Part shown: piece after piece, positions 14,611-35,064 of the stretch
How the letters are laid out: every line of letters begins with the position of its first letter
Position numbering within the stretch: position 1 is the first letter of the stretch
Assembly (NCBI GenBank): GCA_022824805.1
Contig: JAJDZE010000166.1
Coordinates: 1-39,418, forward strand
DNA length: 39,418 nucleotides
Direction of reading: 5' to 3'
Source: Acidimicrobiia bacterium
GTDB taxonomy: Bacteria > Actinomycetota > Acidimicrobiia > Acidimicrobiales > Poriferisodalaceae
Translations under genes and position numbers: made by a program
Notes under the pieces: model-generated
Told to the model about the DNA's origin: nothing
The model's input: the letters and a program-made list of their open reading frames with translations, nothing else
The model's database searches: none

Positions 14611-15236
14611 GCTTTTTCACTGAGGAGAACCGCTCGCTGGCTCGCGAGATCATCGGCCGCTACCCGAAGCGCCGGTCGGCGATGATCCCGCTGTTGCATG
14701 TCGCACAAGCACAGGCCGGTTGGGTCAGCGAGGAAGCGATGGTGGAGATCGCCGAGCTCGTCGACACCACGCCCGCCGAGGTGCTCGGCACGTGTTCGTT
14801 CTACGAGATGTTCAAGCGGGCGCCCGTGGGCACGTACCTCGTCAACATCTGCGCGACCATGTCGTGCGCGCTGGCCGGCGCTGCCGAGCTCATGGAACAC
14901 GCTGAGGAGCGGCTGGGCGTACGCGCCGGCGGCACCACCCCTGACGGCCTGTTCACCCTCGCATCTGCGGAATGCCAGGCCGCCTGCACCGAGGCGCCCT
15001 GCCTGCAGGTGAACTACCGCTACCGCTACCGGGTCGATGCCGACGGGTTCGACCAGCTTGTCGACGACCTCGCTGCGGGCGCGCTCGACGACGAGATCCC
15101 GCCGCACGGGGTCACTGCTCGCGTGCGCCAGCACATCCCGGCAGGCCGAGCAGTCGGCGCCGTGCCGCCCGAAGCGGTCACCGAACCGCCGGTCTGGATT
15201 TCAGCAGCCGTCGGCAATGGGGCAGGTTCGGCGTGA
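14607..15236 (+). CDS. nuoE: NADH-quinone oxidoreductase subunit E (operon 1)
   Basis: This 209-aa subunit of the NADH module belongs to the thioredoxin-like 24-kDa family with one [2Fe-2S] cluster (N1a). The four Cys are in NICATMSC (about residues 81-88) and AECQAAC (about 121-127). The start is GTG at 14607, overlapping the nuoD stop. The C-terminal 45 residues beyond the family core are low-complexity. It is followed not directly by nuoF but by a 20-codon frame overlapping both genes. Confidence 0.95.
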   Translation: MSFFTEENRSLAREIIGRYPKRRSAMIPLLHVAQAQAGWVSEEAMVEIAELVDTTPAEVLGTCSFYEMFKRAPVGTYLVNICATMSCALAGAAELMEHAEERLGVRAGGTTPDGLFTLASAECQAACTEAPCLQVNYRYRYRVDADGFDQLVDDLAAGALDDEIPPHGVTARVRQHIPAGRAVGAVPPEAVTEPPVWISAAVGNGAGSA

Positions 15237-15295
15237 GGGCCCCCAGCCGCCGCGTTGGCGTGCGGTCCGCGTCCGACGGCGGAAGGCTCAGCTGA
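15233..15295 (+). CDS. 20-codon linking open frame between nuoE and nuoF
   Basis: The frame starts at GTG 15233, overlapping the nuoE stop as GTGA. It reads VRAPSRRVGVRSASDGGRLS and stops at TGA 15293-15295, whose A is the first base of the nuoF ATG. It contains the nuoF ribosome site, GGAAGG, 8 nt before the ATG. The 62-nt spacer aligns without gaps to the one between nuoD2 and nuoH2 (about 40 of 62 bases the same by hand count). Whether it is translated is unknown; it may only be a spacer. Confidence 0.35.
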   Translation: MRAPSRRVGVRSASDGGRLS

Positions 15296-16731
15296 TGGCG
15301 TCGTACACGATTCCCCACGCGCCCGGCTTCGTGGCCAACGATGCGCCCCGCATTGTCACTGAGCGATTCGACCATCCCGACAGCTACACGCTCGAGCGCT
15401 ACCTGGCCACCGGCGGTTACGAGGGCCTGCGTGCCGCCTTGGAGCGCACGCCCGAAGAGGTTCACGGCGAGGTCCGCAGCGCGACCCTGCTCGGGCGCGG
15501 CGGTGCCGGCTTTCCCGCAGGAGTGAAGTGGGGCTTCTGCCCGCCCGGTGTGTGGCCTCGCTACCTCGTGGTGAACGGCGATGAGTCTGAGCCCGGCACC
15601 TACAAGGACCGCCTGCTGATGGAGCTCGACCCGCACCAGCTCATCGAGGGGTGCCTCATCGCTTGCTACGCAGTCGGGCTGTCGCAGTGCTTCCTGTACA
15701 TCCGCGGCGAGATGGCGGTCGCACAGGAGCGTGTGGCACAAGCCCTCAACGAGGCCTACGAGGCCGGCTGGGTGGGCCGCAACATCTGCGGCACCGATTT
15801 CTCGGTGGACATCGTGCTTCACTGGGGCGCTGGCGCCTATGTGGTGGGCGAGGAGACAGCACTCATCGAGAGCTTGGAGGGCAACCGCGGCATGCCCCGG
15901 CTCAAGCCCCCGTATTTCCCGGCCGCCATCGGTCTGTACGGCCAGCCGACCATCGTCAACAACGTGGAGACGCTGGCAAACCTGCCGTGGATCCTGCGAC
16001 ACGGCGCCGAGGCGTTCACCGCCATCGGCACGCCCACGTCGCCCGGCACGCGCATGGTGGCGGTGAGCGGGCACGTACGACGCCCCGGCGTGTACGAGAT
16101 CACCAACGGCACCACGACGTTCCGAGACCTGATCTACGGCGACGACTATTGCGGCGGCATGCATCCGGGCCGCGAGCTCAAGGCCTTCGTTCCGGGCGGC
16201 GGCTCAGCGCCGTGGTTCACGCCCGCCCAGCTCGACCTTCCGTTCGAGGCCTCCGAGGTGGGGCCGCAGGGATCGATGCTGGGCTCCGGCGCGGTCATGG
16301 TGATGGACGACACCACCGACATCCCCGCCGCAGCGCTCACGCTGACGAAGTTCTATGCCCACGAGTCATGCGGCAAATGCGTGCCGTGCAGGGAAGGGGC
16401 GACTTGGCTCGAGCGGGTGCTGCGACGCGTCTGCGACGGCACCGGCACGCCGCGCGACCTCGACGTGCTGTTCGAAGTGGGCGCCTCGATCTGCCCCGGC
16501 GACTTTCCCCATGCTGCGGTGCCCGAACGGGGCCTCGAGCCGAAGCCGTTCCCGTACCAGATGACCACCATCTGCTTTGTGGGGCCGTCCGCGTTCGCCC
16601 CGGTGCACTCGGCCATGACACTGTTCCCCGAGGAATTCGAGGCCCGGGTTGCGCCGAACGCGCACCTCGATGCCGGGCCGTCTGATAGCCCTGCACCGAA
16701 TTCCATCTCGGAGGTGGCCATCCGTGTCTGA
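15295..16731 (+). CDS. nuoF: NADH-quinone oxidoreductase subunit F (operon 1)
   Basis: This 478-aa subunit is the NADH-oxidising one, holding FMN and cluster N3. The FMN/NADH glycine-rich loop is LLGRGGAGFPAGVKWGF (about residues 65-81), followed by NGDESEPGTYKDR. The N3 ligands are the Cys of ESCGKCVPCREG (about 356-367) and SICPGD (about 398). GAGAYVVGEETALIESLEG is typical. The ATG at 15295 has a good GGAAGG. The stop overlaps the nuoG start by 8 nt. Its presence shows that this operon makes a true NADH dehydrogenase, unlike operon 2. Confidence 0.96.
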   Translation: MASYTIPHAPGFVANDAPRIVTERFDHPDSYTLERYLATGGYEGLRAALERTPEEVHGEVRSATLLGRGGAGFPAGVKWGFCPPGVWPRYLVVNGDESEPGTYKDRLLMELDPHQLIEGCLIACYAVGLSQCFLYIRGEMAVAQERVAQALNEAYEAGWVGRNICGTDFSVDIVLHWGAGAYVVGEETALIESLEGNRGMPRLKPPYFPAAIGLYGQPTIVNNVETLANLPWILRHGAEAFTAIGTPTSPGTRMVAVSGHVRRPGVYEITNGTTTFRDLIYGDDYCGGMHPGRELKAFVPGGGSAPWFTPAQLDLPFEASEVGPQGSMLGSGAVMVMDDTTDIPAAALTLTKFYAHESCGKCVPCREGATWLERVLRRVCDGTGTPRDLDVLFEVGASICPGDFPHAAVPERGLEPKPFPYQMTTICFVGPSAFAPVHSAMTLFPEEFEARVAPNAHLDAGPSDSPAPNSISEVAIRV

Positions 16732-19213
16732 CGCCACTGCTGCTGAGACAGCGCCGGGCACGGTGGAGGTGACGATCAACGGCGTCGCCATCGATGCGCA
16801 GCCGGGCGAACTGGTCATCGCGGCAGCGGATCGTGCCGGGGTGCACATCCCGCGGTTCTGCTACCACGAGCGGATGAGCCCGGTGGGCATGTGCCGCATG
16901 TGCCTCGTCGAGATCGACACCGGGCGAGGGCCGCAGCTGCAGCCCTCCTGCATGGTGCCTGTCTCGCCGCAGATGGTGGTGGACACCACCAGCGAGCGCA
17001 CGCGGCGGGCGCAGGAAGGCGTGCTGGAGCTGCTGCTCATCAACCACCCGCTCGACTGCCCGGTCTGCGACAAGGGCGGCGAGTGCCCCCTGCAGGACCA
17101 GACCATGGCCTACGGCCCGGGCGAGTCCAGGTTCGTGGAGGAAAAGCGGCACTTCCCCAAGCCGATTCCCATCTCCGACTTGGTTCACCTCGACCGGGAA
17201 CGCTGCATCCTGTGCGACCGCTGCACCCGCTTCGCGGACGAGGTCGCCGGCGACCCCCTCATCGACTTCACCGAGCGGGGAAACGAGACACAGGTGCTCA
17301 CGTTCCCCGGCGAGCCCTTCTCGTCGTACTTCTCGGGCAACACGGTGCAGATCTGCCCCGTCGGTGCGCTCACTGCATCGCCGTACCGCTTCAAGGCGCG
17401 GCCGTGGGATCTCGTCGAGACCGAGTCCACCTGCACGACATGTTCCGTGGGCTGCCGTATCGCGGCGCAGTCGTCGCGCAATGAGCTGGTGCGTTACCTC
17501 GGCGTCGACATCGACCCGGTCAACCACGGCTGGCTGTGCGACAAGGGCCGCTTCGCCTTCGGCTCGGTGGGCAGCCCGGACCGGGTGACGACACCGCTGC
17601 AGGCTCGCGCGCCGTCGGGCGCCGCCTCCGACATCGCGGACGCCGAGCCGCTGCGGCGCTTCCAGCCGACCGACTGGGCGAGTGCCCTCGGTGCCGTGGC
17701 CGCTGCGGTGAAGGCGGCCCGACCCGGCGCGATTGCCGTGCTCGGCGGTGCCCGCGGCACCAACGAGGACGCCTACGCCTGGTCGAAACTGGCCCGCACG
17801 GTGCTGCGGACCGACCATGTAGACGCGCAGCTCGGCGACGGCTTGCCCGCAGAGCTGACGGTAGGCCTGCCGGCAGCAACCATCGATGAGGCGTGCAGCG
17901 CCGACACGACGCTGCTCGTGTGCGGCGACCTCCGCGAGGAGCTGCCGGTGCTGCACCTGCGCCTGCGCGGCGCGGCCCGAGCAGGCACGACTCGGCTGGT
18001 CGAGATCGCTCCGACCACGACGGGCCTGACGCGAAACGCAGTTCGCAGCGAGCAGTGCCGTGGCGGCGAGGCAGCGTCGGTGCTGCGGAACCTGCTCGAC
18101 GGCGATGATCCCTTGGCCGGCGAGCTGGCGTCCGGATCGGTCGTCGTAGTGCTGGGGCGCTCGTCGGTGTCGGAATCCGCCGAGGCAGCCGCCGAGGTGG
18201 CAGCGGTTATCAGCGCGCGCGTGCCCCACGCCCGCTTTCTCGTCGCCGCACGCCGGGGCAACGTCCGCGGCGCGCTCGACATGGGTTTGGCGCCCGGGAT
18301 GCTCCCGGGGCGGGCACTGAGCGCCAGCCCGCCGCAGGAGCTTGCGGCGGCGTGGGGCGAGTTGCCCGGCGAACGCGGGCATGACGCCACAGCGATCCTC
18401 GCGGCGGCCGCCTCCGGAGAAATCGACGTGCTCTTCCTGCTCGGCGCCGATCCGCTCACCGATTTCCCCGACAGCATGCTGGCGCGCCTGGGCGTGTCGG
18501 GCGCAGGCACGGTCGTGGCGGTGGACTCGTTCGTGAGCCAGTCGGCGGCAGAGGCCGACATCGTGCTGCCTGCCGCCGTGTTCGGCGAGAAGTCGGGCAC
18601 CACGACCAACCTGGAGGGACGCGTCTCGGCCGTCGGCGAGTTGGTGACCGCACCTGGCTCGGCCCGCGCTGACTGGATGATCGCAGCCGAGCTGGCCGTG
18701 CTGTGCGGCGGTGACCTGGGCTTCCTGTCGGTCGATGAGATCACTGCCGAAATCGCCGCGGTGTGTGCCACGCACGCCTCAGCGATCGGCCCCGACCTTG
18801 CCGCCGACGGCGTCGTGACGTCGGGAGCAGCCTTCGAGCCCGAGCTTCCGCCCGAACATGTGGCGCCGGCCCGAGACGCCTACGGCCTCCGCTTGGTCTG
18901 CAACCGCAAGCTGTACGACGGCGGCGTGACGGTCAGCCAGACGCCGGCATTGGCGCCGCTGGCGGCCGACACGGTGATGCGCGTGCACCCGGTCGACTTG
19001 GAGCGAGTCGGCGTCGAATCGGGCACAGAAGTCGAGGTGCACTCCGACCGCGGTGCGCTGCGGCTGCCGATCGTGGCCGACGCGGGCATCGCCCGCGGCA
19101 ACGTCGTGGTGCTGTTCCCCTCGCCTCATATCGATGTGGGGGCATTGATCGATGTGACGGCACCGGTCACCGACGTGCGGATCGAGACCCGCGGCGATGG
19201 GGTGTCGCGGTGA
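16724..19213 (+). CDS. nuoG: NADH-quinone oxidoreductase subunit G (operon 1)
   Basis: This 829-aa subunit is the multi-cluster protein of the NADH module. An N-terminal [2Fe-2S] domain has FCYHERMSPVGMCRMC (about residues 44-60). N5 and N4 ligands are in HPLDCPVCDKGGEC (about 107-121), RCILCDRC (about 160-167) and ICPVGAL. A further [4Fe-4S] site of the N7 type is complete: CTTCSVGC (about 237-244) plus LCDKG (about 271). The rest is a molybdopterin-oxidoreductase-like domain with no visible cofactor Cys, as usual for NuoG. The GTG at 16724 follows GGAGG. Its final codons and stop lie in a directly repeated sequence shared with the nuoH start. Confidence 0.95.
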   Translation: MSDATAAETAPGTVEVTINGVAIDAQPGELVIAAADRAGVHIPRFCYHERMSPVGMCRMCLVEIDTGRGPQLQPSCMVPVSPQMVVDTTSERTRRAQEGVLELLLINHPLDCPVCDKGGECPLQDQTMAYGPGESRFVEEKRHFPKPIPISDLVHLDRERCILCDRCTRFADEVAGDPLIDFTERGNETQVLTFPGEPFSSYFSGNTVQICPVGALTASPYRFKARPWDLVETESTCTTCSVGCRIAAQSSRNELVRYLGVDIDPVNHGWLCDKGRFAFGSVGSPDRVTTPLQARAPSGAASDIADAEPLRRFQPTDWASALGAVAAAVKAARPGAIAVLGGARGTNEDAYAWSKLARTVLRTDHVDAQLGDGLPAELTVGLPAATIDEACSADTTLLVCGDLREELPVLHLRLRGAARAGTTRLVEIAPTTTGLTRNAVRSEQCRGGEAASVLRNLLDGDDPLAGELASGSVVVVLGRSSVSESAEAAAEVAAVISARVPHARFLVAARRGNVRGALDMGLAPGMLPGRALSASPPQELAAAWGELPGERGHDATAILAAAASGEIDVLFLLGADPLTDFPDSMLARLGVSGAGTVVAVDSFVSQSAAEADIVLPAAVFGEKSGTTTNLEGRVSAVGELVTAPGSARADWMIAAELAVLCGGDLGFLSVDEITAEIAAVCATHASAIGPDLAADGVVTSGAAFEPELPPEHVAPARDAYGLRLVCNRKLYDGGVTVSQTPALAPLAADTVMRVHPVDLERVGVESGTEVEVHSDRGALRLPIVADAGIARGNVVVLFPSPHIDVGALIDVTAPVTDVRIETRGDGVSR

Positions 19214-19312
19214 CCGGCGATCCGCTCTTCGCCGATGGCCCCGAAGGGCTGCTCGTTTCGACGGCGTGCGATGGGGTGTCGCGGTGACTGGCGATCCGCT
19301 GTTCGCCGATGG
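19194..19312 (+). repeat. tandem duplication of the nuoG-stop/nuoH-start junction
   Basis: A 45-nt sequence occurs at 19194-19238 and again at 19268-19312, 74 nt apart, with 43 of 45 positions identical by direct comparison. Each copy contains GCGATGGGGTGTCGCGGTGA, so ribosome site, stop and GTG start were all duplicated. The spacing of 74 (72+2) puts the two GTG codons in different frames. Confidence 0.92.
19210..19287 (+). CDS. 25-codon linking open frame between nuoG and nuoH
   Basis: GTG at 19210 overlaps the nuoG stop (GTGA), and TGA at 19285 overlaps the nuoH GTG (GTGA again). The first residues, [10 protein letters not shown], duplicate the true NuoH N-terminus, and the last, DGVSR, duplicate the NuoG C-terminus, because the junction itself was copied. 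It may act in handing ribosomes from nuoG to nuoH, or be an inert scar; translation is unproven. Confidence 0.35.
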   Translation: MTGDPLFADGPEGLLVSTACDGVSR

Positions 19313-20639
19313 AGTCGACTGGGGCGACATCGGCATCGTGGGCATCAAGGTGCTCGTGGCGTTCGCTGCCCTGCTGGTCGCCACCATGTTCATGATCTGG
19401 TTCGAGCGCAAGCTGATCTCGGACATGCAACACCGCATCGGCCCCAACGTTGCCGGGCCGTGGGGCCTGCTGCAGGCGCTCGCCGACGGCATCAAGTTCT
19501 TCTTCAAGGAAGACCTGCGCCCCGCCAATGCCGACCCTCTCGTGTTCCGGCTGGCGCCCTACATCTCGGCGGTCACCGCGTTCGTCGCCTTCGCGATCGT
19601 GCCGATCGGAGGCGTCTTCACCGACCCTGCGTCAACGGGCGCCGCTGGACGCGGCGGCACGGTCACGCTCTTCGGCAAGGAGACCATCCTGCAGGTGGCC
19701 GATCCGCCGGTGGGCATCCTGCTGCTGCTCGCGATGTCCTCGGTCGCGGTCTACGGCGTGATGCTGGCGGGCTGGTCCTCCGGTTCGAAGTACCCGCTCA
19801 TCGGCTCGGTCCGCGCCTCGGCGCAGGCCATCTCCTATGAGGCCGCGCTCGGCATGTCCGTCGTGGCGGTGGTGATCGCGGCGGGATCGCTCTCGACCCA
19901 GAGCATCGTGTCGCAGCAGGTTGGCGGTACCTGGTGGGGTGGCAGCCCCGACGACTGGTTCCTGCTCACCACCGGCATCGTGCCATTCGTTGTCTTCCTC
20001 ATCTCCGCAACCGCCGAGCTGAATCGACCGCCGTTCGATCTCGTCGAAGCCGAGCAGGAACTGGTCGGCGGTTTCCACACCGAGTACTCGTCGATCCGCT
20101 TCGCCCTGTTCTTCCTGGCCGAGTTCATGAACGTCATCACGATGTCGGCGATCATGGTGACGCTCTTCTTCGGCGGACCGGCGGGCCCCGTCTTCTTCGG
20201 CCTGACATGGCTGTGGCCCACCGTGTGGTTCCTCGCCAAGGTGCTGGCGTTCCTGTTTGTGTTCGTATGGTTCCGCGCGACGCTGCCCCGCCTGCGCTAC
20301 GACCAGTTGATGTCGCTGGGTTGGAAGGTGCTCATCCCCGTGATGCTGTTCTGGCTGATGTTCCTGGGGCTGCGACAGCTGGTGGCCGATCAGGGCTGGA
20401 GCACGCCGCGAGAGCTGGTGGTGGTACTCGGGCTGAGTGCTGCGGGGCTCGCGCTGGGTTGGACGCTGCTGGCGGCGGCACTGCGCGCAGCCAAGCGCAA
20501 TACGGCCGGGGAGTATTTCGAGGGTCAGGATCTCGAGGCCGTGACGCCGACGGCCGACGCGCCGACCGGCTCGGTCCCGGCAGATCGCGCGCTTGCGGGT
20601 GCATCGCCGGGCGAGGCCGGCCCGGAAGGGGAGAGCTGA
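19284..20639 (+). CDS. nuoH: NADH-quinone oxidoreductase subunit H (operon 1)
   Basis: This 451-aa membrane subunit forms the quinone channel at the junction with the peripheral arm. Typical conserved parts are [32 protein letters not shown], and [20 protein letters not shown] with its acidic residues. About eight transmembrane helices are expected and seen as hydrophobic runs. A roughly 60-residue polar C-terminal tail is extra. The GTG at 19284 was chosen because it follows the second junction copy and gives the usual N-terminus; a near-identical GTG 74 nt upstream runs into a stop. The stop overlaps the nuoI ATG. Confidence 0.95.
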
Positions 20640-21322
20640 TGGGCTACCTCGACGGCTTCAAGGTCACGTTCGGCAAGCTCTTCGGTGAGCGGGTCACCAC
20701 CGAGTACCCCCAGGAGAAGCGGCCGAAGCCGCCCCGCTTCCACGGGCGCCACGTGCTCAACCGCTACCCCGACGGCATGGAGAAGTGCATCGGGTGCGAG
20801 CTGTGTGCGGGTGTCTGCCCGGCCCGGTGCATCTACGTGCGCGGGGCCGACAACCCGCCCGACGACCCGGTGTCGCCGGGGGAGCGCTTCGGCTACGTCT
20901 ACGAGATCAACTACCTGCGCTGCATCCATTGCGACCTGTGCGTGGAAGCCTGCCCGACCGAGGCCATCACCGAGACAAAGGTCTTCGAGTTCAGCTTCCC
21001 CACCCGACGAGACGCCATCTACACGAAGGACGAGTTGCTGACCGACGACGACGGACGGCCCCGGCGGCAGCCATGGGAGCTGTGGCACGACGGCGACGAC
21101 GAGCACACTTCGGGCTGGATGCGGGCCACCTCGCCGTCGGGCCAGCCCGACTACGAGGGCCGTGTCGGCTGGAGCGGCGAGCTGGGCTACGGCGTGCGAG
21201 CGCCCGAGCAGGGCCAGCACGCCGACTACGACGGCACCGAAGACGAATCGCCCGCAGTCGGCGACGAGCCGGCCGAGCTCGACGAGCACGGCCACGCGTC
21301 TGGCGCAGGAGACCATCACTGA
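20639..21322 (+). CDS. nuoI: NADH-quinone oxidoreductase subunit I (operon 1)
   Basis: This 227-aa subunit has two [4Fe-4S] clusters (N6a, N6b), with motifs [16 protein letters not shown] (about residues 48-63) and [16 protein letters not shown] (about 96-111). It relays electrons from the NADH module toward N2 in NuoB. An amphipathic N-terminal stretch is typical of membrane-surface docking. The C-terminal 60-70 residues are acidic and His-rich (ending [11 protein letters not shown]), beyond the family core. Overlaps with nuoH and nuoJ indicate coupling. Confidence 0.95.
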
Positions 21323-21954
21323 TGGTCGAAGTGGTGGTGTTCGCGGTGGCCGGTGCCGCATGCCTCGTCGGCGCGGTCGGCGTGGTGCTGTCGCGCAATC
21401 CGGTGCACGCGGCGCTCATGCTGGTGATGACGCTGTTCGGCGTCGCGGTGCTGTTCGTCGCGCTGCAGGCTCACTTCATCGCTGCGGTGCAGGTCATCGT
21501 GTATGCCGGCGCCATCGTGGTGCTGTTCCTGTTCGTCATCATGCTGCTCGGCGTGGATCGGGCCGCCGAGCTGTCGCTGGGCGCCTTGCCGGCCCAGCGG
21601 TGGACCGCGGCGGCATTCGGCCTCGGCGGCGCCGCCGTGCTGGTCTGGCTGGTCGCTGCGGTCGACCGGATCTTCAAGGGCGCTCATTCGTACGAGCTCG
21701 AGAGTGCAGGCGTCGTCGAAACCGACGCAGTCGCCACGAGCTACGCAACCGATGTCAGCGCAATCGCCCGATCGCTGTTTTCCGACTACGTGTATGCGTT
21801 CGAGCTGACGTCGCTGCTGCTCATCGTGGCGGTCATCGGCACGGTGATCCTGGCGCGACGCAGCTACGGCGCCGATGGTGGGCGCGCCGGCCAGCACGGC
21901 GACGAATCAGCGCCTGCAGAGAGCGGCGCGACGCCGCAGGAGGCGCGCCAGTGA
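21322..21954 (+). CDS. nuoJ: NADH-quinone oxidoreductase subunit J (operon 1)
   Basis: This 210-aa membrane subunit has five hydrophobic segments. The conserved stretch HFIAAVQVIVYAGAIVVLFL (about residues 51-70) includes the helix with the pi-bulge that links quinone chemistry to proton pumping. The last 30 residues are polar. The ATG at 21322 overlaps the nuoI stop, and the stop overlaps the nuoK GTG. Confidence 0.94.
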   Translation: MVEVVVFAVAGAACLVGAVGVVLSRNPVHAALMLVMTLFGVAVLFVALQAHFIAAVQVIVYAGAIVVLFLFVIMLLGVDRAAELSLGALPAQRWTAAAFGLGGAAVLVWLVAAVDRIFKGAHSYELESAGVVETDAVATSYATDVSAIARSLFSDYVYAFELTSLLLIVAVIGTVILARRSYGADGGRAGQHGDESAPAESGATPQEARQ

Positions 21955-22355: not shown

Positions 22356-22359
22356 GTCG

Positions 22360-27647: not shown

Positions 27648-27679
27648 GCTGTATACTCCTCACATGCGGCGTATACAGC
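27648..27679 (+). promoter_or_regulatory. palindromic operator and leaderless promoter of the vapBC-type pair
   Basis: Perfect 9-base arms GCTGTATAC (27648-27656) and GTATACAGC (27671-27679) are separated by 14 bases that include the ATG of the antitoxin gene. The left arm carries TATACT (27652-27657), a good -10 box exactly 6 nt before the A of the ATG, so transcription probably starts at the start codon. The GTATAC half-sites are 20 nt apart, two helical turns, suiting side-by-side binding by the ribbon-helix-helix antitoxin. No clear -35 box is seen. Confidence 0.65.
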
Positions 27680-27894
27680 TTTACATGGCGCCTGACATCG
27701 ATGACGCCTTGACGGCGGCGGCAGCAAAGCGGGGGGTGTCGCGCTCCGCGCTGATGCGGGACGCCGTGCGCACATTGCTCGAATCCGATGGTCCAGCGCA
27801 GGCCGACCCCATCGATGCACTTGTCGGATGGCTGGATGTGGAACCTAGCGATGACATCGATGCGGTGGTCTACGGCTACGAAGCGCATACGTGA
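27664..27894 (+). CDS. ribbon-helix-helix antitoxin (VapB-type)
   Basis: This 76-aa protein has an N-terminal ribbon-helix-helix pattern: MRRIQLYMAPDIDDALTAAA, followed by KRGVSRSALMRDAVRTLLE (a beta strand that reads DNA plus two helices). The acidic C-terminus (about residues 46-76) would wrap the toxin. Such proteins neutralise a PIN toxin and repress their own operon; the palindrome across the start codon supports autoregulation. The ATG has no upstream ribosome site because the transcript is probably leaderless. Its stop overlaps the toxin GTG as GTGA. Confidence 0.85.
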   Translation: MRRIQLYMAPDIDDALTAAAAKRGVSRSALMRDAVRTLLESDGPAQADPIDALVGWLDVEPSDDIDAVVYGYEAHT

Positions 27895-28286
27895 GATTCG
27901 CTGACACCTCGTTCTGGATCGCCCTGCAAGTTCAGCGCGACCGCAACCACGCTTCTGCGGCAGCACTGTGGAGCAGCAATCTGCGTCCGGTGCGAACCTC
28001 GAACGTGGTGCTCGGCGAGACCTGGACTTGGCTGCGAAGCCGTGCCGGTCACGCGGCCGCAGAGCGGGCCATCGCCGAGATACGTCGCTCTGGGCGTGTC
28101 TCGGTGGCTCACGTCGGTGAGATGATCGATTTGCGAGCGTGGGAATGGCTTCGGCGGCATGACGAGCGTGCCTACTCCTACGTCGATGCCACCAGCTTCG
28201 AGATCATGCGCCGAGAGCGCATCAGGGAGGCCTTTGCATTCGACGGCGACTTCAGTGCAGCGGGCTTCGTGGAAGTGCGCCCGTAG
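27891..28286 (+). CDS. PIN-domain ribonuclease toxin (VapC-type)
   Basis: This 131-aa PIN protein has all four acidic metal-binding residues: Asp5 (MRFADTSFW), Glu43 (VVLGETW), Asp99 (YSYVDATSF) and Asp118 (AFAFDGDFSAAGF). VapC toxins cleave specific RNAs, often tRNA or rRNA, with Mg2+. The GTG start overlaps the antitoxin stop, so toxin synthesis is coupled to antitoxin translation. The gene looks intact. It belongs to the small islet between two nuo operons. Confidence 0.88.
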   Translation: MRFADTSFWIALQVQRDRNHASAAALWSSNLRPVRTSNVVLGETWTWLRSRAGHAAAERAIAEIRRSGRVSVAHVGEMIDLRAWEWLRRHDERAYSYVDATSFEIMRRERIREAFAFDGDFSAAGFVEVRP

Positions 28287-28301
28287 CCCCAACCGCCCGG
28301 T

Positions 28302-28679
28302 TTGCAAAGCTTTGAACGAGAAGTCAAACCTAGAGCAAATTTCAAAACTTTGAATCTGCGGCATCGCTTCGCGACATCACGTGTCGCTGAACTGATCCAG
28401 CGTGGTCAAGCAGACGCTCGCGGATTGCTCGGAGCGCTCGTCGAGAAAGGGCTGATCGAACCGCGCGGCCGTGGCCGCGAGTATTACCTGTCCGCGTCCT
28501 TGTACCGCCGCTTTCATAAGGAACGTCGATGTCGTTCGTACGGTCGATCTGCGAGCGGTGTCCTTCGGGATCCGACGCCTGAGCTCGCCGAGCCCAATGC
28601 CCTGATCTCACAAGAACGCGAAGGCTCCTCTCTTGTGGAGGCGCTCTCGCGTCGCGACGGATCGGTACGCGCGGTGTGA
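28302..28679 (+). pseudogene. fragment of a winged-helix (AlbA_2/RecG-like) regulator protein
   Basis: A 125-codon frame contains one recognisable piece, SRVAELIQRGQADARGLLGA followed by LVEKGLIEPRGRGREYYLSA. This resembles the C-terminal winged helix of ATP-binding AlbA_2-domain proteins. The rest of such a protein (400-500 aa) is absent upstream, and the text after residue 75 looks non-coding. The TTG start is weak. The beginning is AT-rich and carries two similar 14-nt stretches (28304-28317 and 28342-28355). Most likely a remnant left by insertion or deletion. Confidence 0.4.
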
Positions 28680-28810
28680 CGACCGATGAGACGGAGTCCT
28701 CCTCGGGTGCGCAGAACATCGGGTGACGCTCCGTAGAGTGAGCGGCGAGTTCTCTGAAGCAACCAAGACGCACAGTTCGCAGGCCCTCCAGAACGAGCGG
28801 GGATGCTTCG

Positions 28811-31800
28811 ATGGCCGAAGGAAAGCTCCACGAGCACGATTTCAACGCCGCGCTCGCCGAGGCGATGAAGCGGATGCATGCCGACGACCGCGTCATCTTC
28901 AGCCACGAGCGCGTCGGCGTGCTCAGGCCCGTCTCCGGCGGCGGCTCGCGCCGCGTGGACGTGCTGGTGAGAGCCAAGAATCTCTTGCCGGTCGCTGTCG
29001 AGGTCGAGTACGACCGCCCGGGCGCCAGGCCAGACCGCGATGCCGAGGCGCGGCTGGGCCTCGAATTCGTCGGCGACGGTCGGGTGATCTCCTCGGCGAT
29101 CTCGGTGCTCGCGCCCCCGCTGGCTGAGCAGTGGACCGATCACGAGGACGCCGTGAGCCGCCTCGTCGGCGGAGCGCAATTGCAGTACGCCGTCCTCTCT
29201 CGGTCAGAAGATGCGGGGGCGCCGGGCCGCTGGCCTCGGGCGGGCTGGCTCACCGGCACGGCGCAGTCGCTGGCCGAGCTTGCCGTCATGGTCTCGGTTC
29301 CGCCGGGTCAACTGGAGCTCGTAGCCGTCGACGCCGCCGACAAGATGCGCGGCATTTCAGAAGACCTCGCCGCCGACCTCAGCGACGGCGCCAAGCTTCG
29401 GCTGGCGGCTGCGATGGGGCGGCCGTCGGGCTCGGACAGCCTCAACGTGGTCGGTGTGGTGTGGCTGAATGCATTCCTGTTCCAGGACCGGATTGCGCGG
29501 TCGCACCCCGACGTGCCGAAGCGCTCGGAGGCAGCCCCCGACCACAACCCGATCCCCCAGCTGGTGCGGCAGGCCTGGGAGGCGATCCGCGCCATCGACT
29601 ACCGATCGGTGTACGACCCTGCGACTGCCGCGCTGGGCATTGTCGAACGAGATGTCGGGACTGCCCTCACTGCTGACCTGCTCGGACGGGCGGCACTCAT
29701 CGCCGGCCGTGTCGAATCGGGCGTGCTCGGTGTGTTCGACATCGGTGGCGAGCTGTTCCAGCGCCTCATATCGGACAGGTCGGAGGCGGCGAGCTATTAC
29801 ACCCGCCCAGAAGTCGCGGAGTTCCTCGCCCACATCACGGTCAACGACAGTGTGCGGCTACCGCGCTCGGCCCGCGCGGTGGCGCTGGGCGAGTTGGATC
29901 ACCTGGGCGAGGTCTTTCGCATCGCCGACTTCGCCTGTGGCACGGGAACCCTGCTCCGTGCGGCCTATCGGAGAGTTCGTGCCCTTGCGCGAGCAGCGGG
30001 AGCGCAGCCAGAAGGCTTGGCCGCGTTGCATACGCACCTGATGGAGGAAGGCTTCTGCGGCGTCGACATCTCGCCGATAGCGGCTCACCTGACTGCATCG
30101 AGCCTCTCGAATATCGAGCCTGGCACCGACTACCGCCACACCAACATCGGCGTCGCGCCGGTGTGCGGCCCGAAGGGTGTCACCGGCTCAGTCGAGTATC
30201 TGGAGACCGAGTATCTCGCTGACCTCTTCGGCTACGAGGCTTCGACGACAGGAGCCGCACCTCGCGCAGGCGCCGAAGCGGACGCACAAGGCTTGTACGC
30301 CCCCGATGAGCGCTTCGACATTGTGCTCATGAACCCGCCGTACTCGCGCACACGGGGTGGCCAGGCGCTGTTCGACATCGCCGGCGCGACCGACGCTGAG
30401 CGCGTGAGAGCCCAGAAGCGGGCAGCGAAACTGGTGCACGACACACCCGCCAATCTCAAGGCTGGGCTCGCTGCTGTGTTCTGCGAATTGGTGCGCCGCA
30501 AGCTCAGCCCCGGCGGGCGGGTCGGCATCGTGCTGCCCGTCACCGCCGCCGCATCGCCTGCTTGGTCAGGCATTCGGGCCATGTTCGAGACGGACTTCGA
30601 CGACCTGCTACTGGTGGCATTCCCGGGCGCGACCCGTGGTGGAGACAAGACGCTCTCGGCCGACACCGCGATGGGCGAGATGATTATCGCTGGTACCAAG
30701 CGCTCCGAAGCTCGCGTTGACCTCGCCGCAGCCGACATCATGACGGTGGCGCTCGACGAGCCGTTCGGGAGCATCGCTGTGGCCGCCGAGACGGGACGAT
30801 CGGTCGATGCTGCGCTACGCGGCCGGGAGGAGCAGCGGGAGGGCAACGTCACGGTGGGTTCCGCCGTGACTGGCCGATGGACGGTGCTGCCGACCGCCGA
30901 CGGCGGGCCGTGGGCCGCAGTCGGGGCTGCGAGCTTCGGTGCGGTGGCAGTTGCAGAACGGCTCACGCGGCGGGGCGAATTCATGCCTCTCGATGCGCAC
31001 GAACCTGTATGCCAAGTCGCCATGACGACCATCGGCAAGCTGTTCGAACTAGGCCCGACGCATCACCGCATAGGTCATGTCGCAGGCAACGAGCCGATCG
31101 GAGAGTTTGAGCTGTGGCCGGTCACGGACGATCAGGTGCGCCCCGACACGTCGCTGTGGGCATCCGATGCTGAAGCTCAGACTGCGCTGACTGTCGACCC
31201 CACGCACTATGGCCTAGCTGTCGGCCCACGGCTCAGCACGGCACGCGAGAAGGCGCTTGCGCAACTGCAACGCAAGCTGCGACGGACCAATGGCGGCAAG
31301 CCCAGCGATTCGGCAATTGCGGACGCCCAGTCCGAAGCCGAGGCAGCCGAAAGGGTTCGCTCGCAGGATGCGCTTGCCGAGATGCGACGCTGCCGGTCCA
31401 CGCTCTTCTACCAGCGCGGCATCTTCTGGCCCTCACAGGTGGCGCTTGTCGCGGTCACCGACAAGCCGGTCATGGGCGGACGGGCATGGTGTGCGCTCTT
31501 GCACGACGACCCCGTCGTCCGCTTCGGCTTCGCGATCTGGGCCAACTCGACGCTCGGCATGGTCGTGCACTGGTCGCGTGCGCAGCGTCAGCAACACGGT
31601 CGCAGCAGCACCCAGCTGGAAGGCATCCGGCAGATGCCGTGCCCAGACTTCAACGAGACTGCGACGCACGCGGCAGCCCGCGACCTGTTGTCGGCCAGCC
31701 AGCACGTCCTGAGTGACCGGCTGATGCCCGCTCGTGATGCCCACCGCGATCCTGCCCGTGCAGCCCTGGACGAAGCTGCAGCCCACCTGCTCGGAATCCC

Positions 31801-31885
31801 CGACGCCGAGTCGTTGCGCGATCTCGCCCGCAACTGGTGCTGCGAACCATCCGTCCACGACGGGACACCACCGAGGTTCGAATGA
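28811..31885 (+). CDS. single-chain N6-adenine DNA methyltransferase, possibly type IIG restriction enzyme
   Basis: This 1024-aa protein has a gamma-type N6-adenine methyltransferase core: SYYTRPEVAEFLAH (about residue 329), motif I ADFACGTGTLLRAAY (about 371-385) and catalytic motif IV NPPY (508-511). An N-terminal 70-residue part has Asp50, Glu64 and Glu66 in RRVDVLVRAK and VAVEVEYD. This is a D-x13-E-x-E layout like the BamHI variant of the PD-(D/E)xK nuclease site. The C-terminal 350 residues would be target recognition. Nuclease plus methylase plus specificity in one chain of about 1000 aa fits type IIG enzymes. The nuclease call is inferred; it could be a methylase only. No separate R or S gene is nearby. 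Confidence 0.8.
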   Translation: MAEGKLHEHDFNAALAEAMKRMHADDRVIFSHERVGVLRPVSGGGSRRVDVLVRAKNLLPVAVEVEYDRPGARPDRDAEARLGLEFVGDGRVISSAISVLAPPLAEQWTDHEDAVSRLVGGAQLQYAVLSRSEDAGAPGRWPRAGWLTGTAQSLAELAVMVSVPPGQLELVAVDAADKMRGISEDLAADLSDGAKLRLAAAMGRPSGSDSLNVVGVVWLNAFLFQDRIARSHPDVPKRSEAAPDHNPIPQLVRQAWEAIRAIDYRSVYDPATAALGIVERDVGTALTADLLGRAALIAGRVESGVLGVFDIGGELFQRLISDRSEAASYYTRPEVAEFLAHITVNDSVRLPRSARAVALGELDHLGEVFRIADFACGTGTLLRAAYRRVRALARAAGAQPEGLAALHTHLMEEGFCGVDISPIAAHLTASSLSNIEPGTDYRHTNIGVAPVCGPKGVTGSVEYLETEYLADLFGYEASTTGAAPRAGAEADAQGLYAPDERFDIVLMNPPYSRTRGGQALFDIAGATDAERVRAQKRAAKLVHDTPANLKAGLAAVFCELVRRKLSPGGRVGIVLPVTAAASPAWSGIRAMFETDFDDLLLVAFPGATRGGDKTLSADTAMGEMIIAGTKRSEARVDLAAADIMTVALDEPFGSIAVAAETGRSVDAALRGREEQREGNVTVGSAVTGRWTVLPTADGGPWAAVGAASFGAVAVAERLTRRGEFMPLDAHEPVCQVAMTTIGKLFELGPTHHRIGHVAGNEPIGEFELWPVTDDQVRPDTSLWASDAEAQTALTVDPTHYGLAVGPRLSTAREKALAQLQRKLRRTNGGKPSDSAIADAQSEAEAAERVRSQDALAEMRRCRSTLFYQRGIFWPSQVALVAVTDKPVMGGRAWCALLHDDPVVRFGFAIWANSTLGMVVHWSRAQRQQHGRSSTQLEGIRQMPCPDFNETATHAAARDLLSASQHVLSDRLMPARDAHRDPARAALDEAAAHLLGIPDAESLRDLARNWCCEPSVHDGTPPRFE

Positions 31886-32072
31886 TCGCTGCGAAGGGCA
31901 GCCTTCGGCAGTCGCCAACTGCTATGGAACGGCCAGTGCGGAGCGATGTTCGAGGGCGCATCGGGCGCACGTAATCTGGTGCTGCAGCCAGCCTCGCCGT
32001 TCTGTATCAGCGAACGGTCTGGGTTGTGCAGATTCGGCGCAGGGTGGCGCGAAGTCGCTAGCGTTGCGGTCC
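31886..32072 (+). promoter_or_regulatory. 187-bp region before the second nuo operon, likely promoter
   Basis: No gene is supported. A TAGCGT box at 32059-32064 lies 8 nt before the GTG of nuoA2, and no Shine-Dalgarno is visible, so nuoA2 may be transcribed from at or near its start codon. No good -35 box is seen at the right distance. This gap should hold the promoter because the gene before it is unrelated. Confidence 0.35.
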
Positions 32073-32438
32073 GTGTCCGACCTCTTGCGGAGCTATCTGA
32101 CCGTCGCAATCTTCGGCGCAGCGGCAGTCCTGATGGCCTTCACGATGTTCGGAGTCGCACGGGTCCTGCGGCCCCAGCGACCGACGCCCCAGAAGCTCAT
32201 CGCATACGAGAGCGGCGTCGATCCGGTCGGCAGCGACTGGACCCAGAGCCAGATCCGCTACTACGTCTTCGCGGTGCTCTTCGTGCTGTTCGACGTGGAG
32301 GCCGTGTTCATCTTTCCGTGGGCGACGCGGCTCGAGGTCTATGCCCTGTTCGGCCTGGTCGAGATGGCGATCTTCATCTTCATCTTGGTGCTGGGCCTGT
32401 TCTACGCATGGCGCAAAGGCGTCCTGCGCTGGGTGTGA
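32073..32438 (+). CDS. nuoA: complex I subunit A, second operon
   Basis: This 121-aa protein has three transmembrane helices (about residues 8-30, 63-82 and 88-110) and the conserved loop KLIAYESGVDPVG (about 43-55). In place of the Cys in the ECG loop motif of operon 1 it has ESG, as in some complex I relatives. The normal NuoA length contrasts with the 180 aa of the first copy, and the repeat-bearing tail is missing. GTG at 32073 starts the family text. First gene of a set without nuoEFG. Confidence 0.93.
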   Translation: MSDLLRSYLTVAIFGAAAVLMAFTMFGVARVLRPQRPTPQKLIAYESGVDPVGSDWTQSQIRYYVFAVLFVLFDVEAVFIFPWATRLEVYALFGLVEMAIFIFILVLGLFYAWRKGVLRWV

Positions 32439-32458
32439 GGGGCTGAGGGAATTCCGCG

Positions 32459-33025
32459 ATGGCACTGGTCGACAAGGTCAAACTGCCCAAGCCGCTGAGC
32501 TGGCTGCTGAACTTCGGCCGAGCGCGCTCGCTGTGGGTGTACCAGTGGGGCCTGGCCTGCTGCGCCATCGAGATGGGCGCCGCATTCGGCTCGCCTCGCT
32601 ATGACGTGATGCGTCTGGGCGTCATCCCGTTCCCGGCCAGCCCGCGCCAAGCCGATCTGGTAGTGATCTCGGGCACCGTCACCGACAAGATGGCGCCGGT
32701 CATCCGCCGCCTGTACGAGCAGATGCCCGAGCCCAAGTACGTCATCTCGATGGGCTCGTGCGCCAACTGCGGCGGGCCGTACTGGGACAGCTACTCGGTG
32801 ACCAAGGGTGTGGATCAGGTCATCCCGGTCGACGTGTACGTGCCCGGCTGTCCGCCGCGGCCCGAGGCACTGCTGGAAGGCATCGTGCTGCTGCAGGAGC
32901 GCATCCAGCGCGAGGACATGCAAGAACGCTGGCGCGGCGAGCCGATAGTGGTGCCGACCTCGGCACCATCATCGACACGGGGCCCCGCAGCGCCGGCGGT
33001 CTCAGCAGGATCGGCGCAGGCGTAG
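32459..33025 (+). CDS. nuoB: complex I subunit B, second operon
   Basis: This 188-aa protein has all N2 ligands: LACCAIEMG (about residues 32-40), GSCANCGG (about 99-106; the Cys are two residues apart) and GCPPRPE (about 130). It differs from copy 1 by the second Cys in CANC and by a shorter, repeat-free tail rich in Ala, Pro and Ser. It reduces quinone with NuoD2. The ATG at 32459 follows GAGGGAAT. Confidence 0.95.
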
Positions 33026-33027
33026 CC

Positions 33028-33753
33028 ATGGCCGACGACACCGGCGACGAGCAGCCTGACGATCAGGCAGGCGACGAGGCGCGCGAAGCGCTCGCCGCCG
33101 AACTGTCCGAGCTGCTCGGCGATGCGGTGATCGAATCCCATGTGGAAACAGGCCAGAACCTCTGGCTGCGCATCGACATCGAGCAGTGGCATGGCGCGAT
33201 GGCAGCGCTGCGCGATGCAGGCTTCGCCTACTTCGGGTTCCTGTCGGCCATCGACTGGACCGATGCACCCGAGGGCCGCTACGAAGACACTGAGTTCGAT
33301 TCCGCCGGCGCCGGCGAAGAAGAGGACGCCTCCAGCGCCACCGCCGAGGAGACCGTGCGGCGAGGAGGCGGCGAGACCCGCTTCCAACTGCTTGCGCAAC
33401 TGCATTCGCCGGCCCGGCACGCCGCCGTGCTCATCAAGGCCGACGTGCCCCCCGCCGACGGCGCTCCCGCATCGGTGCCGTCGATCATCGACGTTTTCGC
33501 CGGGGCCGACTGGCATGAGCGAGAGGCCCACGAGATGTTCGGCCTCGTCTTCGAAGGTCATCCGAATCTGGAGCACATCTACCTGCCCACCGAGTTCGAG
33601 GGCCACCCGCTGCGCAAGGACTTCCCCTTGCTGGCTCGTGCGGTCAAGCCGTGGCCCGGCGTGGTCGACATCGAGGAGATCCCGCCTGAGCTCGAAGCCC
33701 AGCTCGAGGCCGAGGTGATGGCCGAGTTCGAGGCATCAGGAGCGGGCGCGTGA
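33028..33753 (+). CDS. nuoC: complex I subunit C, second operon
   Basis: This 241-aa protein carries the signature [20 protein letters not shown] followed by [15 protein letters not shown]. Two insertions relative to short NuoC proteins stand out: an acidic N-terminus of about 20 residues and an acidic Glu/Ala/Ser-rich stretch near residues 85-115. The C-terminus is a Glu-rich helix. The ATG is 2 nt after the nuoB2 stop. Its stop overlaps a 23-codon frame that leads into nuoD2. Confidence 0.93.
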
Positions 33754-33821
33754 GCTCAGCTTTCGTGACGCCGGCCATGCTTGATGGCGCTCGCAGGCTC
33801 GCGTCTGGGGCGGACGCATGA
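33750..33821 (+). CDS. 23-codon linking open frame between nuoC2 and nuoD2
   Basis: GTG 33750 overlaps the nuoC2 stop as GTGA, and the TGA at 33819-33821 overlaps the nuoD2 ATG as ATGA. The frame begins [20 protein letters not shown] and ends ADA. GGGGCGG before the nuoD2 start may be a weak ribosome site. The first and last junctions share GC[G/A]TGAGC, a possible trace of duplication. No family; translation unproven. Confidence 0.3.
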
Positions 33822-35002
33822 GCCCCCCGCCGACGGCATCGACGCTGCGTGAGCAGCAGGCCTACGTGGCGGCCCAGGCCGCCGACGCTCGTGTCAATGT
33901 CGAGCTGGACACCGGCGACATGACGCTGAACATCGGCCCGCAGCATCCCGCAACTCACGGCACGCTGCGCATCGCCTGCCAGCTCGACGGTGAGCAGGTC
34001 ATCTCGGCTGAGCCCCTCATGGGCTACATGCACCGCGGCTACGAGAAGCTCTGCGAGGTCCGCACCTACCCCCAGTGCACCACGCTGATCAACCGCATCG
34101 ACTGGCTGGGCAGCTTCGCCAACGAGGTGCCGTTCATCCTGGCGGCCGAGCAGCTGATGGGCGTGGAAGCCCCGCCCCGTGCGCAATGGATCCGCACGAT
34201 CCTGTTCGAGCTGAGCCGTATCGCGAACCTGTCGCTGTTCCTGGGCGACATGGGCGTGCAGGTGGGCGCGCTCACGCCGGTGTTCTTCGCCTTCCGCGAC
34301 CGCGAGCGGGTGCTCAACCAGATCGAGGAAGTCACCGGCGGCCGATTCCACCCCAACTTCGACCGCATCGGCGGCCTGAAAGACGACATCCCCCGCGGCT
34401 GGATCGCCGAGACGCACGCCGTCATGGCCAAGATGCGCGGCTTCTGCGACGAGATGGAAGACCTGCTCATGGGCAACGAGATCTTCCAGACTCGCTGCCG
34501 CAGCGTCGGCGTGATCCCGGGCGATGTGGCGCTCAGCTACGGCCTGTCGGGCGCCAACCTCCGCGCCAGCGGGGTCGACTGGGACCTGCGCCGCGACGCC
34601 AACCCGGGCCTCGCCTGGGACCAGGTGGACTGGCGGGTCTGGACCCATCCAGACGGCGACTCGTTTGCCCGCTACTGGGTGCGCCTGCAGGAGACCCGCG
34701 AGGCCACCAAGATCGTCGACCAGCTGCTCGACGGCATCCCCTCGGGCCCGATCATGGCCAAGGTGCCGCGCATCATCAAGGTGCCCGCCGGAGAGGCGTA
34801 CGTGTCCACCGAGAACCCGCTGGGCGAGATGGGCTACTACGTGGTGTCCAAGGGCGGTCTCGGCCCGTTCCGGGTGAAGATCCGCACGCCCAGCTTCAGC
34901 AACATCTCGGTGGTGCCGTGGGTGATGCGGGGCACCTACGTGCCCGACATCATCACCATCCTCGGCTCGCTGTACTTCATCCTCGGAGACATCGACCGAT
35001 GA
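33818..35002 (+). CDS. nuoD: complex I subunit D, second operon
   Basis: This 394-aa quinone-pocket subunit has the His site in NIGPQHPATHGTLR (about residues 38-51) and the Tyr site in GYMHRGYEKLCE (about 69-80). The end reads TILGSLYFILGDIDR. It is clearly a paralogue of the first copy, but differs through most of its length, so the two operons are not a recent duplication. The ATG at 33818 overlaps the preceding linking frame, and its stop overlaps the next one. Confidence 0.95.
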   Translation: MSPPPTASTLREQQAYVAAQAADARVNVELDTGDMTLNIGPQHPATHGTLRIACQLDGEQVISAEPLMGYMHRGYEKLCEVRTYPQCTTLINRIDWLGSFANEVPFILAAEQLMGVEAPPRAQWIRTILFELSRIANLSLFLGDMGVQVGALTPVFFAFRDRERVLNQIEEVTGGRFHPNFDRIGGLKDDIPRGWIAETHAVMAKMRGFCDEMEDLLMGNEIFQTRCRSVGVIPGDVALSYGLSGANLRASGVDWDLRRDANPGLAWDQVDWRVWTHPDGDSFARYWVRLQETREATKIVDQLLDGIPSGPIMAKVPRIIKVPAGEAYVSTENPLGEMGYYVVSKGGLGPFRVKIRTPSFSNISVVPWVMRGTYVPDIITILGSLYFILGDIDR

Positions 35003-35064
35003 GCGTTCGCGACCGCCGCGTTGGAGCATGCGCCGCGCCCGACGGTGAGAAGGTCGACCGATGA
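34999..35064 (+). CDS. 21-codon linking open frame between nuoD2 and nuoH2
   Basis: ATG 34999 overlaps the nuoD2 stop (ATGA), and TGA 35062 overlaps the nuoH2 ATG (ATGA). The peptide begins MSVRDRRVGACAAPDGEK. It shares RRVG, the later DG and basic residues at the same positions with the nuoE/F linking peptide. The 14-nt phrase TCGACCGATGAGCG occurs at both ends (34992 and 35054), 62 nt apart. AGAAGG, 7 nt before nuoH2, is the ribosome site. Confidence 0.35.
   Translation: MSVRDRRVGACAAPDGEKVDR

What the first reader, a model, noticed from the sequence alone, without database searches (positions are those of the whole stretch)
15233..35064. Four nuo gene gaps are filled exactly by 20-25 codon frames chained by stop/start overlaps
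Seen directly: between nuoE/F, nuoG/H, nuoC2/D2 and nuoD2/H2 a short frame begins in a GTGA or ATGA overlap with the upstream stop and ends with a stop that overlaps the next start (TGATG, GTGA, ATGA, ATGA). No base is left uncovered. Most other nuo junctions in operon 1 overlap directly, so the chain keeps reading unbroken. Known: overlapping stop/start pairs allow termination-reinitiation. Inferred: the mini-frames act as relay cistrons that pass ribosomes across a gap, perhaps tuning subunit ratios, and I know of no described complex I feature like this. Chance open frames are common in GC-rich DNA, but overlap at both ends in four gaps looks unlikely.
Basis: partly seen in the sequence, partly recalled or inferred. 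Interest (0 to 1): 0.75.

Follow-up and report, generated by a model that had tools for sequence, protein, structure and literature searches.

The report
Mini-frames bridging coupled gene junctions
In this uncultured actinobacterium the gaps between some tightly overlapping genes are filled by tiny reading frames, several of them copied from the gene ends beside them, and comparison with sister genomes suggests that such inserts survive only when they let a ribosome pass from gene to gene without a break.

Summary
Four nuo gaps (15233-15295, 19210-19287, 33750-33821, 34999-35064) are 20-25 codon frames overlapping the upstream stop and the downstream start. Openness alone means little in this GC-rich DNA; the register is what is unusual.

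In ten same-genus genomes these junctions switch between direct ATGA/GTGA/TGATG overlaps and mini-frames. The same is seen at nuoC/D, nuoD/E, nuoI/J and at ribosomal-protein junctions, sometimes as two chained mini-frames. At ten junctions all 19 gap-length alleles counted keep the stop/start chain, whereas length changes at 65 uncoupled junctions spread over all three frames (31/38/41).

Several inserts are duplications of their own junction; one module was copied among nuoD/E, nuoE/F and nuoD2/H2. Peptides look near-neutral and no covarying RNA structure was found.

Best reading: small duplications arise at translationally coupled junctions, and those that keep termination-reinitiation unbroken survive. 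The mini-frames are relays by constraint; tuning of subunit ratios is unsupported. The nearest precedent is the mycobacterial MIRU mini-ORF. Outside the genus the rule is looser. No expression data were available.

The parts
15233..15295 (+). nuoE/F mini-frame, 20 codons, GTGA overlap with nuoE stop, TGATG with nuoF start; carries the RRV..DG module
   Evidence: orthologous frame in 9 of 11 genus genomes, direct overlap in 2
19210..19287 (+). nuoG/H mini-frame, 25 codons, begins as NuoH and ends as NuoG
   Evidence: in 5 of 11 genus genomes, direct overlap in 6
19194..19238 (+). first copy of the duplicated nuoG/nuoH junction
   Evidence: 45 nt, 96% identical to 19268-19312 at 74-nt spacing
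19268..19312 (+). second copy of the duplicated nuoG/nuoH junction
33750..33821 (+). nuoC2/D2 mini-frame, 23 codons
   Evidence: in 4 of 10 genus genomes, direct overlap in 6, one of them (G005) with the related sequence fused to NuoD2
34999..35064 (+). nuoD2/H2 mini-frame, 21 codons; carries the RRV..DG module
   Evidence: other genus genomes: 5-codon frames in 2, direct overlap in 7 of 10
34992..35005 (+). direct repeat TCGACCGATGAGCG spanning the nuoD2 stop
35054..35067 (+). second copy of TCGACCGATGAGCG spanning the nuoH2 start
14607..14610 (+). nuoD/E direct GTGA overlap; in seven other genus genomes this junction holds the related module (six tabulated, G005 at a contig break)
14607..15236 (+). 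nuoE
   Evidence: NCBIfam TIGR01958 above cut-off
15295..16731 (+). nuoF
   Evidence: NCBIfam NF010120 above cut-off
16724..19213 (+). nuoG
   Evidence: NCBIfam TIGR01973 above cut-off
19284..20639 (+). nuoH
   Evidence: NCBIfam NF004741 above cut-off
33028..33753 (+). nuoC2
   Evidence: NuoC family resemblance, E 2.1e-26, below cut-off
33818..35002 (+). nuoD2
   Evidence: NCBIfam NF004739 above cut-off
35061..36107 (+). nuoH2
   Evidence: NCBIfam NF004741 above cut-off

Best explanation
The four mini-frames are short insertions at gene junctions whose ancestral state was a direct ATGA/GTGA/TGATG overlap. Several arose in place by tandem duplication of the junction (tail of the upstream gene, stop/start, head of the downstream gene); one module was also copied between nuo junctions. 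Such an insertion is kept if it leaves an unbroken chain of overlapping stops and starts, so that a terminating ribosome can restart on the mini-frame and again on the next gene. The mini-frame is a relay kept by constraint; its peptide has little or no function, and its loss restores the direct overlap. Shown here: anatomy, gain and loss between sister genomes, duplication origin of several inserts, frame constraint, near-neutral peptides. Inferred: that the mini-frames are translated, and that reinitiation is the cause of the constraint.
For: Same-family genera have direct overlaps at nearly all of these junctions. In 11 genus genomes, at ten junctions, 107 junction-by-genome states are either direct (48) or bridged (59), none unbridged. 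19 of 19 gap-length alleles fit the frame class of one mini-frame (16) or two chained mini-frames (3); uncoupled junctions show 31/38/41 over the classes. Junction duplication: nuoG/H, rpsS/rplV tail match in 11 of 11 genomes, nuoC/D in G010, rplF/rplR, nuoD/E of another genus with two chained frames. Copied module: 19 strong matches, all at three nuo junctions. Peptides near-neutral. Mini-frame starts carry Shine-Dalgarno pairing like coupled genes (-6.5 against -2.2 kcal/mol at random sites). Published distance dependence of reinitiation (PMC10666635).
Against: No expression data. Genes after mini-frames also keep Shine-Dalgarno pairing (-6.0), so they could start on their own. Outside the genus the rule is loose: 6 chains and 10 unbridged long gaps at ten nuo junctions in 71 loci, and two other-order genomes have long unbridged nuoD2/H2 gaps. 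Alleles are related by descent, so 19 is not 19 independent trials. In-frame openness is nearly free at this GC content. No excess in 20 other stretches of the own genome. nuoE/F, nuoI/J and rpsN/rpsH show little or no sign of junction duplication.
Confidence: 0.7

Rival explanations
1. Pure by-product: duplicating an overlapping junction copies both ends, about one third of duplications keep the frame, and nothing selects for it.
For: Junction copies are visible, and the copied parts are open by themselves; same-length shuffles stay open.
Against: Predicts about one third of alleles in register; 19 of 19 are, 12 of 12 without the two junctions never seen as direct overlaps, 8 of 8 without also the four window alleles (subsets counted by hand). 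Uncoupled junctions show no such bias.
Confidence: 0.1
2. Selection is for continuous translation rather than for reinitiation: an untranslated stretch would expose the mRNA to Rho-dependent termination or decay, and any frame that covers the gap will do.
For: Frames cover the gaps completely; mini-frame starts have Shine-Dalgarno pairing.
Against: Does not need the mini-frame to end exactly on the next start, yet it does in all 59 bridged cases (the classifier demands it, but no case failed); long untranslated gaps are common elsewhere in the same operons, for example nuoK/L.
Confidence: 0.12
3. The mini-frames encode functional small peptides or an RNA regulatory element.
For: Pairwise counts lean synonymous at nuoE/F (0.62 against 0.30 expected), nuoG/H (0.56 against 0.29) and nuoC2/D2 (0.60 against 0.31); a short stem in the module pairs in nearly all 18 copies.
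Against: Counting each change once there is no bias (50 synonymous against 45.8 expected, p 0.26); nuoD/E and rpsS/rplV show none even pairwise; sister genomes lack the frames; 0 of 8 predicted pairs has a two-sided change; no Rfam match in the window.
Confidence: 0.05
4. A MIRU-like mobile element inserts at start/stop junctions.
For: The RRV..DG module sits at three separate nuo junctions and is tandemly repeated in G007.
Against: The module was found at no other place in 25 whole genomes (150 candidates scored per genome), and the inserts at other junctions are unrelated to it and partly copies of local sequence.
Confidence: 0.08

Closest known systems
Mycobacterial interspersed repetitive units (MIRU; Supply et al. 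1997, seen only as cited in the review PMC12548453)
   Different: MIRUs are described as mobile repeats found in many mycobacteria. Here several inserts come from their own junction, sequences at different junctions are mostly unrelated, and the one shared module was found only at three nuo junctions.
Translational coupling by termination-reinitiation at -4/-1 nt overlaps (PMC6728339 passages; PMC10666635 abstract and passages)
   Same: Same overlap motifs, heteromeric complexes, and a need for very short distance.
   Different: A third, non-gene frame, sometimes two, stands between the two genes.
Leader genes that raise translation by reinitiation (PMC4833913, abstract) and short uORFs that deliver ribosomes (PMC12548453, passage)
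   Same: Short frame whose product is not the point; it hands a ribosome on.
   Different: Here the short frame is internal to an operon and overlaps at both ends, receiving as well as delivering.
mgtQ, a small ORF between mgtC and mgtB of Salmonella (PMC8092293, outline and short abstract)
   Same: Small frame in an operon gap that promotes downstream translation.
   Different: By its section headings mgtQ works through stem-loops and acidic codons; here no covarying structure and no peptide constraint were found.

Membership tests
MIRU-type insert | Short ORF coupled to the neighbouring gene by an overlap at the insertion site | tested here: met
   Both ends overlap in all four window frames
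MIRU-type insert | Dispersed repeat family with related copies at many unrelated loci | tested here: not met
   Module found twice in this genome, both in this window; in 25 genomes strong matches only at nuoD/E, nuoE/F, nuoD2/H2
MIRU-type insert | Mobile insertion rather than local duplication | tested here: inconclusive
   Local duplication at nuoG/H, rpsS/rplV, nuoC/D, rplF/rplR; copying between nuo junctions for the module
MIRU-type insert | Sequence homology to mycobacterial MIRUs | not tested
   No MIRU sequence was fetched or compared
Termination-reinitiation coupling | -4 or -1 nt stop/start overlap | tested here: met
Termination-reinitiation coupling | Downstream translation depends on ribosomes arriving from upstream | not testable with these tools
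   needs reporters or profiling
Regulatory leader peptide or small protein | Conserved peptide | tested here: inconclusive
   No bias when each change is counted once; pairwise lean to synonymous in three of six long sets
RNA regulatory element | Conserved, covarying structure or known family | tested here: not met
   0 of 8 predicted pairs with a two-sided change in 18 module copies; no Rfam match in the window

The most novel reading that the evidence does not exclude
Coupled gene junctions in this genus are a niche for coupling-compatible micro-cistrons: short modules that arise by junction duplication, copy themselves between junctions of the same pathway, stack in tandem, and are lost without trace, tolerated only while they keep the ribosome relay intact.
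Probability: 0.25. Interest if true: 0.75.

Novelty: new variant of a known kind. Interest (0 to 1): 0.6.

Why it matters
Whether a terminated ribosome can cross an intergenic gap or must restart at an overlapping codon is still argued (PMC10666635, PMC12548453). Here evolution has made insertions repeatedly at the same junctions of sister species, and in the genus only chain-keeping ones were seen at the coupled junctions compared. That gives matched natural alleles (direct overlap, one mini-frame, two mini-frames) for reporter tests, and shows a simple route by which tiny reading frames arise inside operons.

Tried and rejected
Openness of the frames as evidence: rejected, because same-length shuffles keep 3.33 of 4 bridged. 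RNA element: no two-sided pair changes, no Rfam match in the window. Genome-wide repeat: a pattern allowing 3 mismatches found two copies in the genome, both in this window; a sequence profile found strong matches only at three nuo junctions (the first look passes on 150 candidates per genome, so weak copies could be missed). Peptide conservation: no bias when each change is counted once; pairwise counts lean synonymous for three sets. In-frame stops: none in the mini-frames, but my classifier demands openness, so this counts only in that no non-direct case at these junctions failed it; 160 substitutions would give about 4.5 stops at the pooled rate, P(0) 0.01, or about 3.7 when weighted by junction (my arithmetic).

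Choices behind the frame-class count: alleles are distinct gap lengths over 12 nt, plus by hand the 10-nt (5-codon) nuoD2/H2 allele. Five junctions were kept out of the coupled class by hand (upstream tails DDFAAPA, AEHWLGA, NTASAEV, TDDNEGN, VRRTGEW). Of these only DDFAAPA has gaps over 12 nt, neither of its two lengths bridged; its single 'overlap' is a TTGA read as a start. With it the count is 19 of 21. rpsN/rpsH and rpsM/rpsK were put in although no genus genome shows them as direct overlaps; rpsN/rpsH has a Shine-Dalgarno-like stretch before an earlier ATG and may not be a true relay. The nuoC/D allele of G010 is not among the 19. A bridged junction in four other-genus genomes (tail LEGPHCA) is probably a miscalled start. 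Gene calls are from a small caller of my own, which put the nuoH start 18 nt too early.

Mapping of gains and losses on the tree was done by eye, not computed. Searches in which I found no description of in-place junction duplication giving relay frames, or of such frames in nuo operons: (open-licence papers; listings and start of abstracts seen).
Full report
1. What is there. NCBIfam agrees with the names of the eight flanking proteins scanned, NuoC2 only below cut-off. The relatives are metagenome-assembled: nine named contigs with 92-97% identical NuoF are labelled Acidimicrobiia, Acidimicrobiales, Acidimicrobiaceae or Microthrixaceae. The wider claim of an unbroken chain holds from nuoA to nuoK and for M/N, but not for K/L (94 nt), L/M (2 nt) or much of operon 2.

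2. Is it more than chance. In the window 4 of 11 co-directional gaps of 20-160 nt are bridged; after insertion of 1-2 bases none is, but with the gap interior shuffled at the same length 3.33 still are. So the open frame is cheap and the register is the signal. With my own gene caller the chain-aware survey gave 15 bridged of 119 gaps against 3.45 by frameshift control in 400 kb of G010, and 10 of 86 against 2.85 in 326 kb of G000; the nine other genus genomes, mostly nuo and ribosomal stretches, also lay above their controls. In 20 stretches of the own genome without the window there was no excess (2 of 65 against 2.05). In stretches of eleven other-genus genomes it was 6 of 87 against 2.4, four of the six at one doubtful start.

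3. The same junctions in relatives. Eleven genus genomes (own plus ten) were compared. nuoE/F: mini-frame in 9 of 11 (20 codons in 8, 25 in G004), direct overlap in G005 and G010. nuoG/H: 25 codons in 5 of 11, direct in 6. nuoC2/D2: 23 codons in 4 of 10, direct in 6, of which G005 has the related sequence fused in frame to NuoD2. nuoD2/H2: 21 codons here, 5 codons in G006 and G007, direct in the other 7 of 10. nuoD/E: of 10 tabulated, direct in 4, one 21-codon frame in G006 and G008, two chained frames in G001-G003 (21+7) and in G007 (22+21); G005 has the module at a contig break. nuoI/J: one frame, in G007 of 11. nuoC/D: a 36-codon frame in G010. Ribosomal operon, 11 genomes each: rpsS/rplV 22 codons in 7, direct in 4; rplF/rplR 9 codons in G002 and G003, direct in 9; rpsM/rpsK 21 codons in 8, 10 in G004, 22 in G005, 21+10 chained in G000; rpsN/rpsH 8, 13 or 18 codons in steps of 15 nt. 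Other genera of the family have direct overlaps at nearly all these nuo junctions, so the nuo mini-frames are derived. On a tree of eight nuo genes the patterns need repeated losses or gains; for example nuoG/H frames occur in both main clades and are missing in members of each. This was read by eye.

4. The frame constraint. Relative to the upstream stop, a direct overlap, one mini-frame and two mini-frames put the downstream gene in three different frame classes, whichever in-frame start is chosen. At ten junctions there are 107 junction-by-genome states, 48 direct and 59 bridged, none unbridged. Of 19 distinct gap-length alleles, 16 fall in the single class and have one mini-frame, 3 fall in the double class and have two. 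At 65 uncoupled junctions with varying gaps the length changes spread 31, 38 and 41 over the classes, so indels themselves are not biased. Leaving out the two junctions never seen as direct overlaps gives 12 of 12; leaving out also the four alleles that prompted the finding gives 8 of 8. At one third per allele that is about 2e-6 and 2e-4 (my arithmetic; alleles are not fully independent). The hand choices behind these counts, and the reading in which it is 19 of 21, are under Tried and rejected.

5. Where the inserts come from. Several are copies of their own junction. nuoG/H: 45 nt repeated at 74-nt spacing, 96% identical; the mini-frame begins as NuoH and ends as NuoG. rpsS/rplV: the insert matches the tail of rpsS in 11 of 11 genomes, E 1.7e-7 to 4.6e-5. 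nuoC/D in G010: NuoD head plus NuoC tail. rplF/rplR: a 26-nt period. Register tests around the two stops support this at nuoC2/D2, nuoD2/H2 of G000, rpsM/rpsK and part of the nuoD/E cases, but give little or nothing at nuoE/F, nuoI/J and rpsN/rpsH. In another genus (L242) nuoD/E holds two chained frames that both begin MIPRCAP, the first ending in the NuoD tail. A second source is copying: the nuoD/E, nuoE/F and nuoD2/H2 frames share a module read in the same frame, with RRV and DG in common. A profile search of 25 whole genomes gave 19 matches at E 1e-10 or better, all at these three junctions in 10 of 11 genus genomes, and nothing else above background (next 1e-4; 150 candidates scored per genome). 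In this genome nuoD/E is a direct overlap while nuoD2/H2 carries the module.

6. What is and is not conserved. Peptides: 50 synonymous to 110 other changes in six sets, 45.8 synonymous expected, p 0.26; pairwise counts lean synonymous for nuoE/F, nuoG/H and nuoC2/D2, weakly for rpsM/rpsK, not for nuoD/E or rpsS/rplV. RNA: 0 of 8 predicted pairs show a two-sided change; no Rfam match in the window. Shine-Dalgarno pairing is strong before direct overlaps (-6.8 and -7.1 kcal/mol), before mini-frame starts (-6.5) and before genes after mini-frames (-6.0), weaker before ordinary gap genes (-4.85), and -2.2 at random sites. The mini-frame starts therefore look like possible initiation sites, but the genes after them could also start on their own.

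7. Mechanism. Reporter work in E. coli and Haloferax found that gaps of about 20 nt almost completely abolish coupling and concluded that overlaps are needed (PMC10666635, abstract and passages). Given that, an insertion at a coupled junction is tolerated if it carries a frame that restarts on the old stop and ends on the next start. Junction duplication supplies both ends at once and open sequence, leaving the length to chance. This explains the double overlap, unrelated sequences at different junctions, second mini-frames where the frame has slipped, near-neutral peptides and clean losses. Outside the genus the filter is weaker: in the 71 loci L175-L245, at ten nuo junctions from A/B to J/K, I count 6 chains and 10 unbridged long gaps, against 17 chains and no unbridged long gap in the nine genus loci (not every locus covers every junction). 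Two genomes of other families (G033, G034) have long unbridged nuoD2/H2 gaps.

8. Known relatives. A 2025 review describes MIRUs as apparently mobile repeats that insert at start codons so that their ORF is coupled with -4 nt spacing, probably with little effect on the host gene (PMC12548453, passage); the original MIRU paper was not seen. Short leader genes have been proposed to raise translation by reinitiation (PMC4833913, abstract). The working principle is therefore known. In-place junction duplication, stacking, rapid gain and loss, and the frame-class evidence were not found in print in the searches listed under Tried and rejected.

9. Verdict. Observation confirmed; relay reading supported as a constraint, not as a tuning device; not special to complex I. 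New variant of a known kind.

Noticed in passing
window 11436-11460; 60 places in the own genome: GAGCGNAGCGAACAAGAGCGGGAAA is a dispersed repeat: 29 forward and 31 reverse matches with up to 3 mismatches, 0 for the reversed control. A related stretch ends nuoI just before the nuoI/J mini-frame of G007.
   Followed up: partly
window 12031-12081 and 12662-12781: The 3' ends of nuoA and nuoB hold 30-nt tandem units with GCATGGAGYGSCGCA; the nuoB form has 4 copies in the genome, all here.
   Followed up: partly
window 27664-28286: Ribbon-helix-helix protein followed by a PIN-domain protein, overlapping by 4 nt: looks like a VapBC-type toxin-antitoxin pair between the two nuo operons.
   Followed up: no
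window 28811-31885: 1024-aa protein with a match to N6_Mtase just below Pfam's cut-off (19.9 against 20.4 bits), perhaps a restriction-modification type enzyme.
   Followed up: no
L059 / L036 18551-18622 (G005): In G005 the sequence related to the nuoC2/D2 mini-frame is fused in frame to the N-terminus of NuoD2, so a mini-frame and an N-terminal extension can interchange.
   Followed up: partly
L242 nuoD/E; L070 nuoD2/H2 (G019): A different genus of the family has its own double-overlap frames: two chained at nuoD/E and one of 20-odd codons at nuoD2/H2 whose tail repeats the NuoD2 end.
   Followed up: partly
L094 12232-12268 (G010 contig C31 232232-232268): A weak second match (E 2.2e-4) to the nuoC2/D2 mini-frame profile downstream in operon 2 of G010; its exact place relative to genes was not examined.
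   Followed up: no
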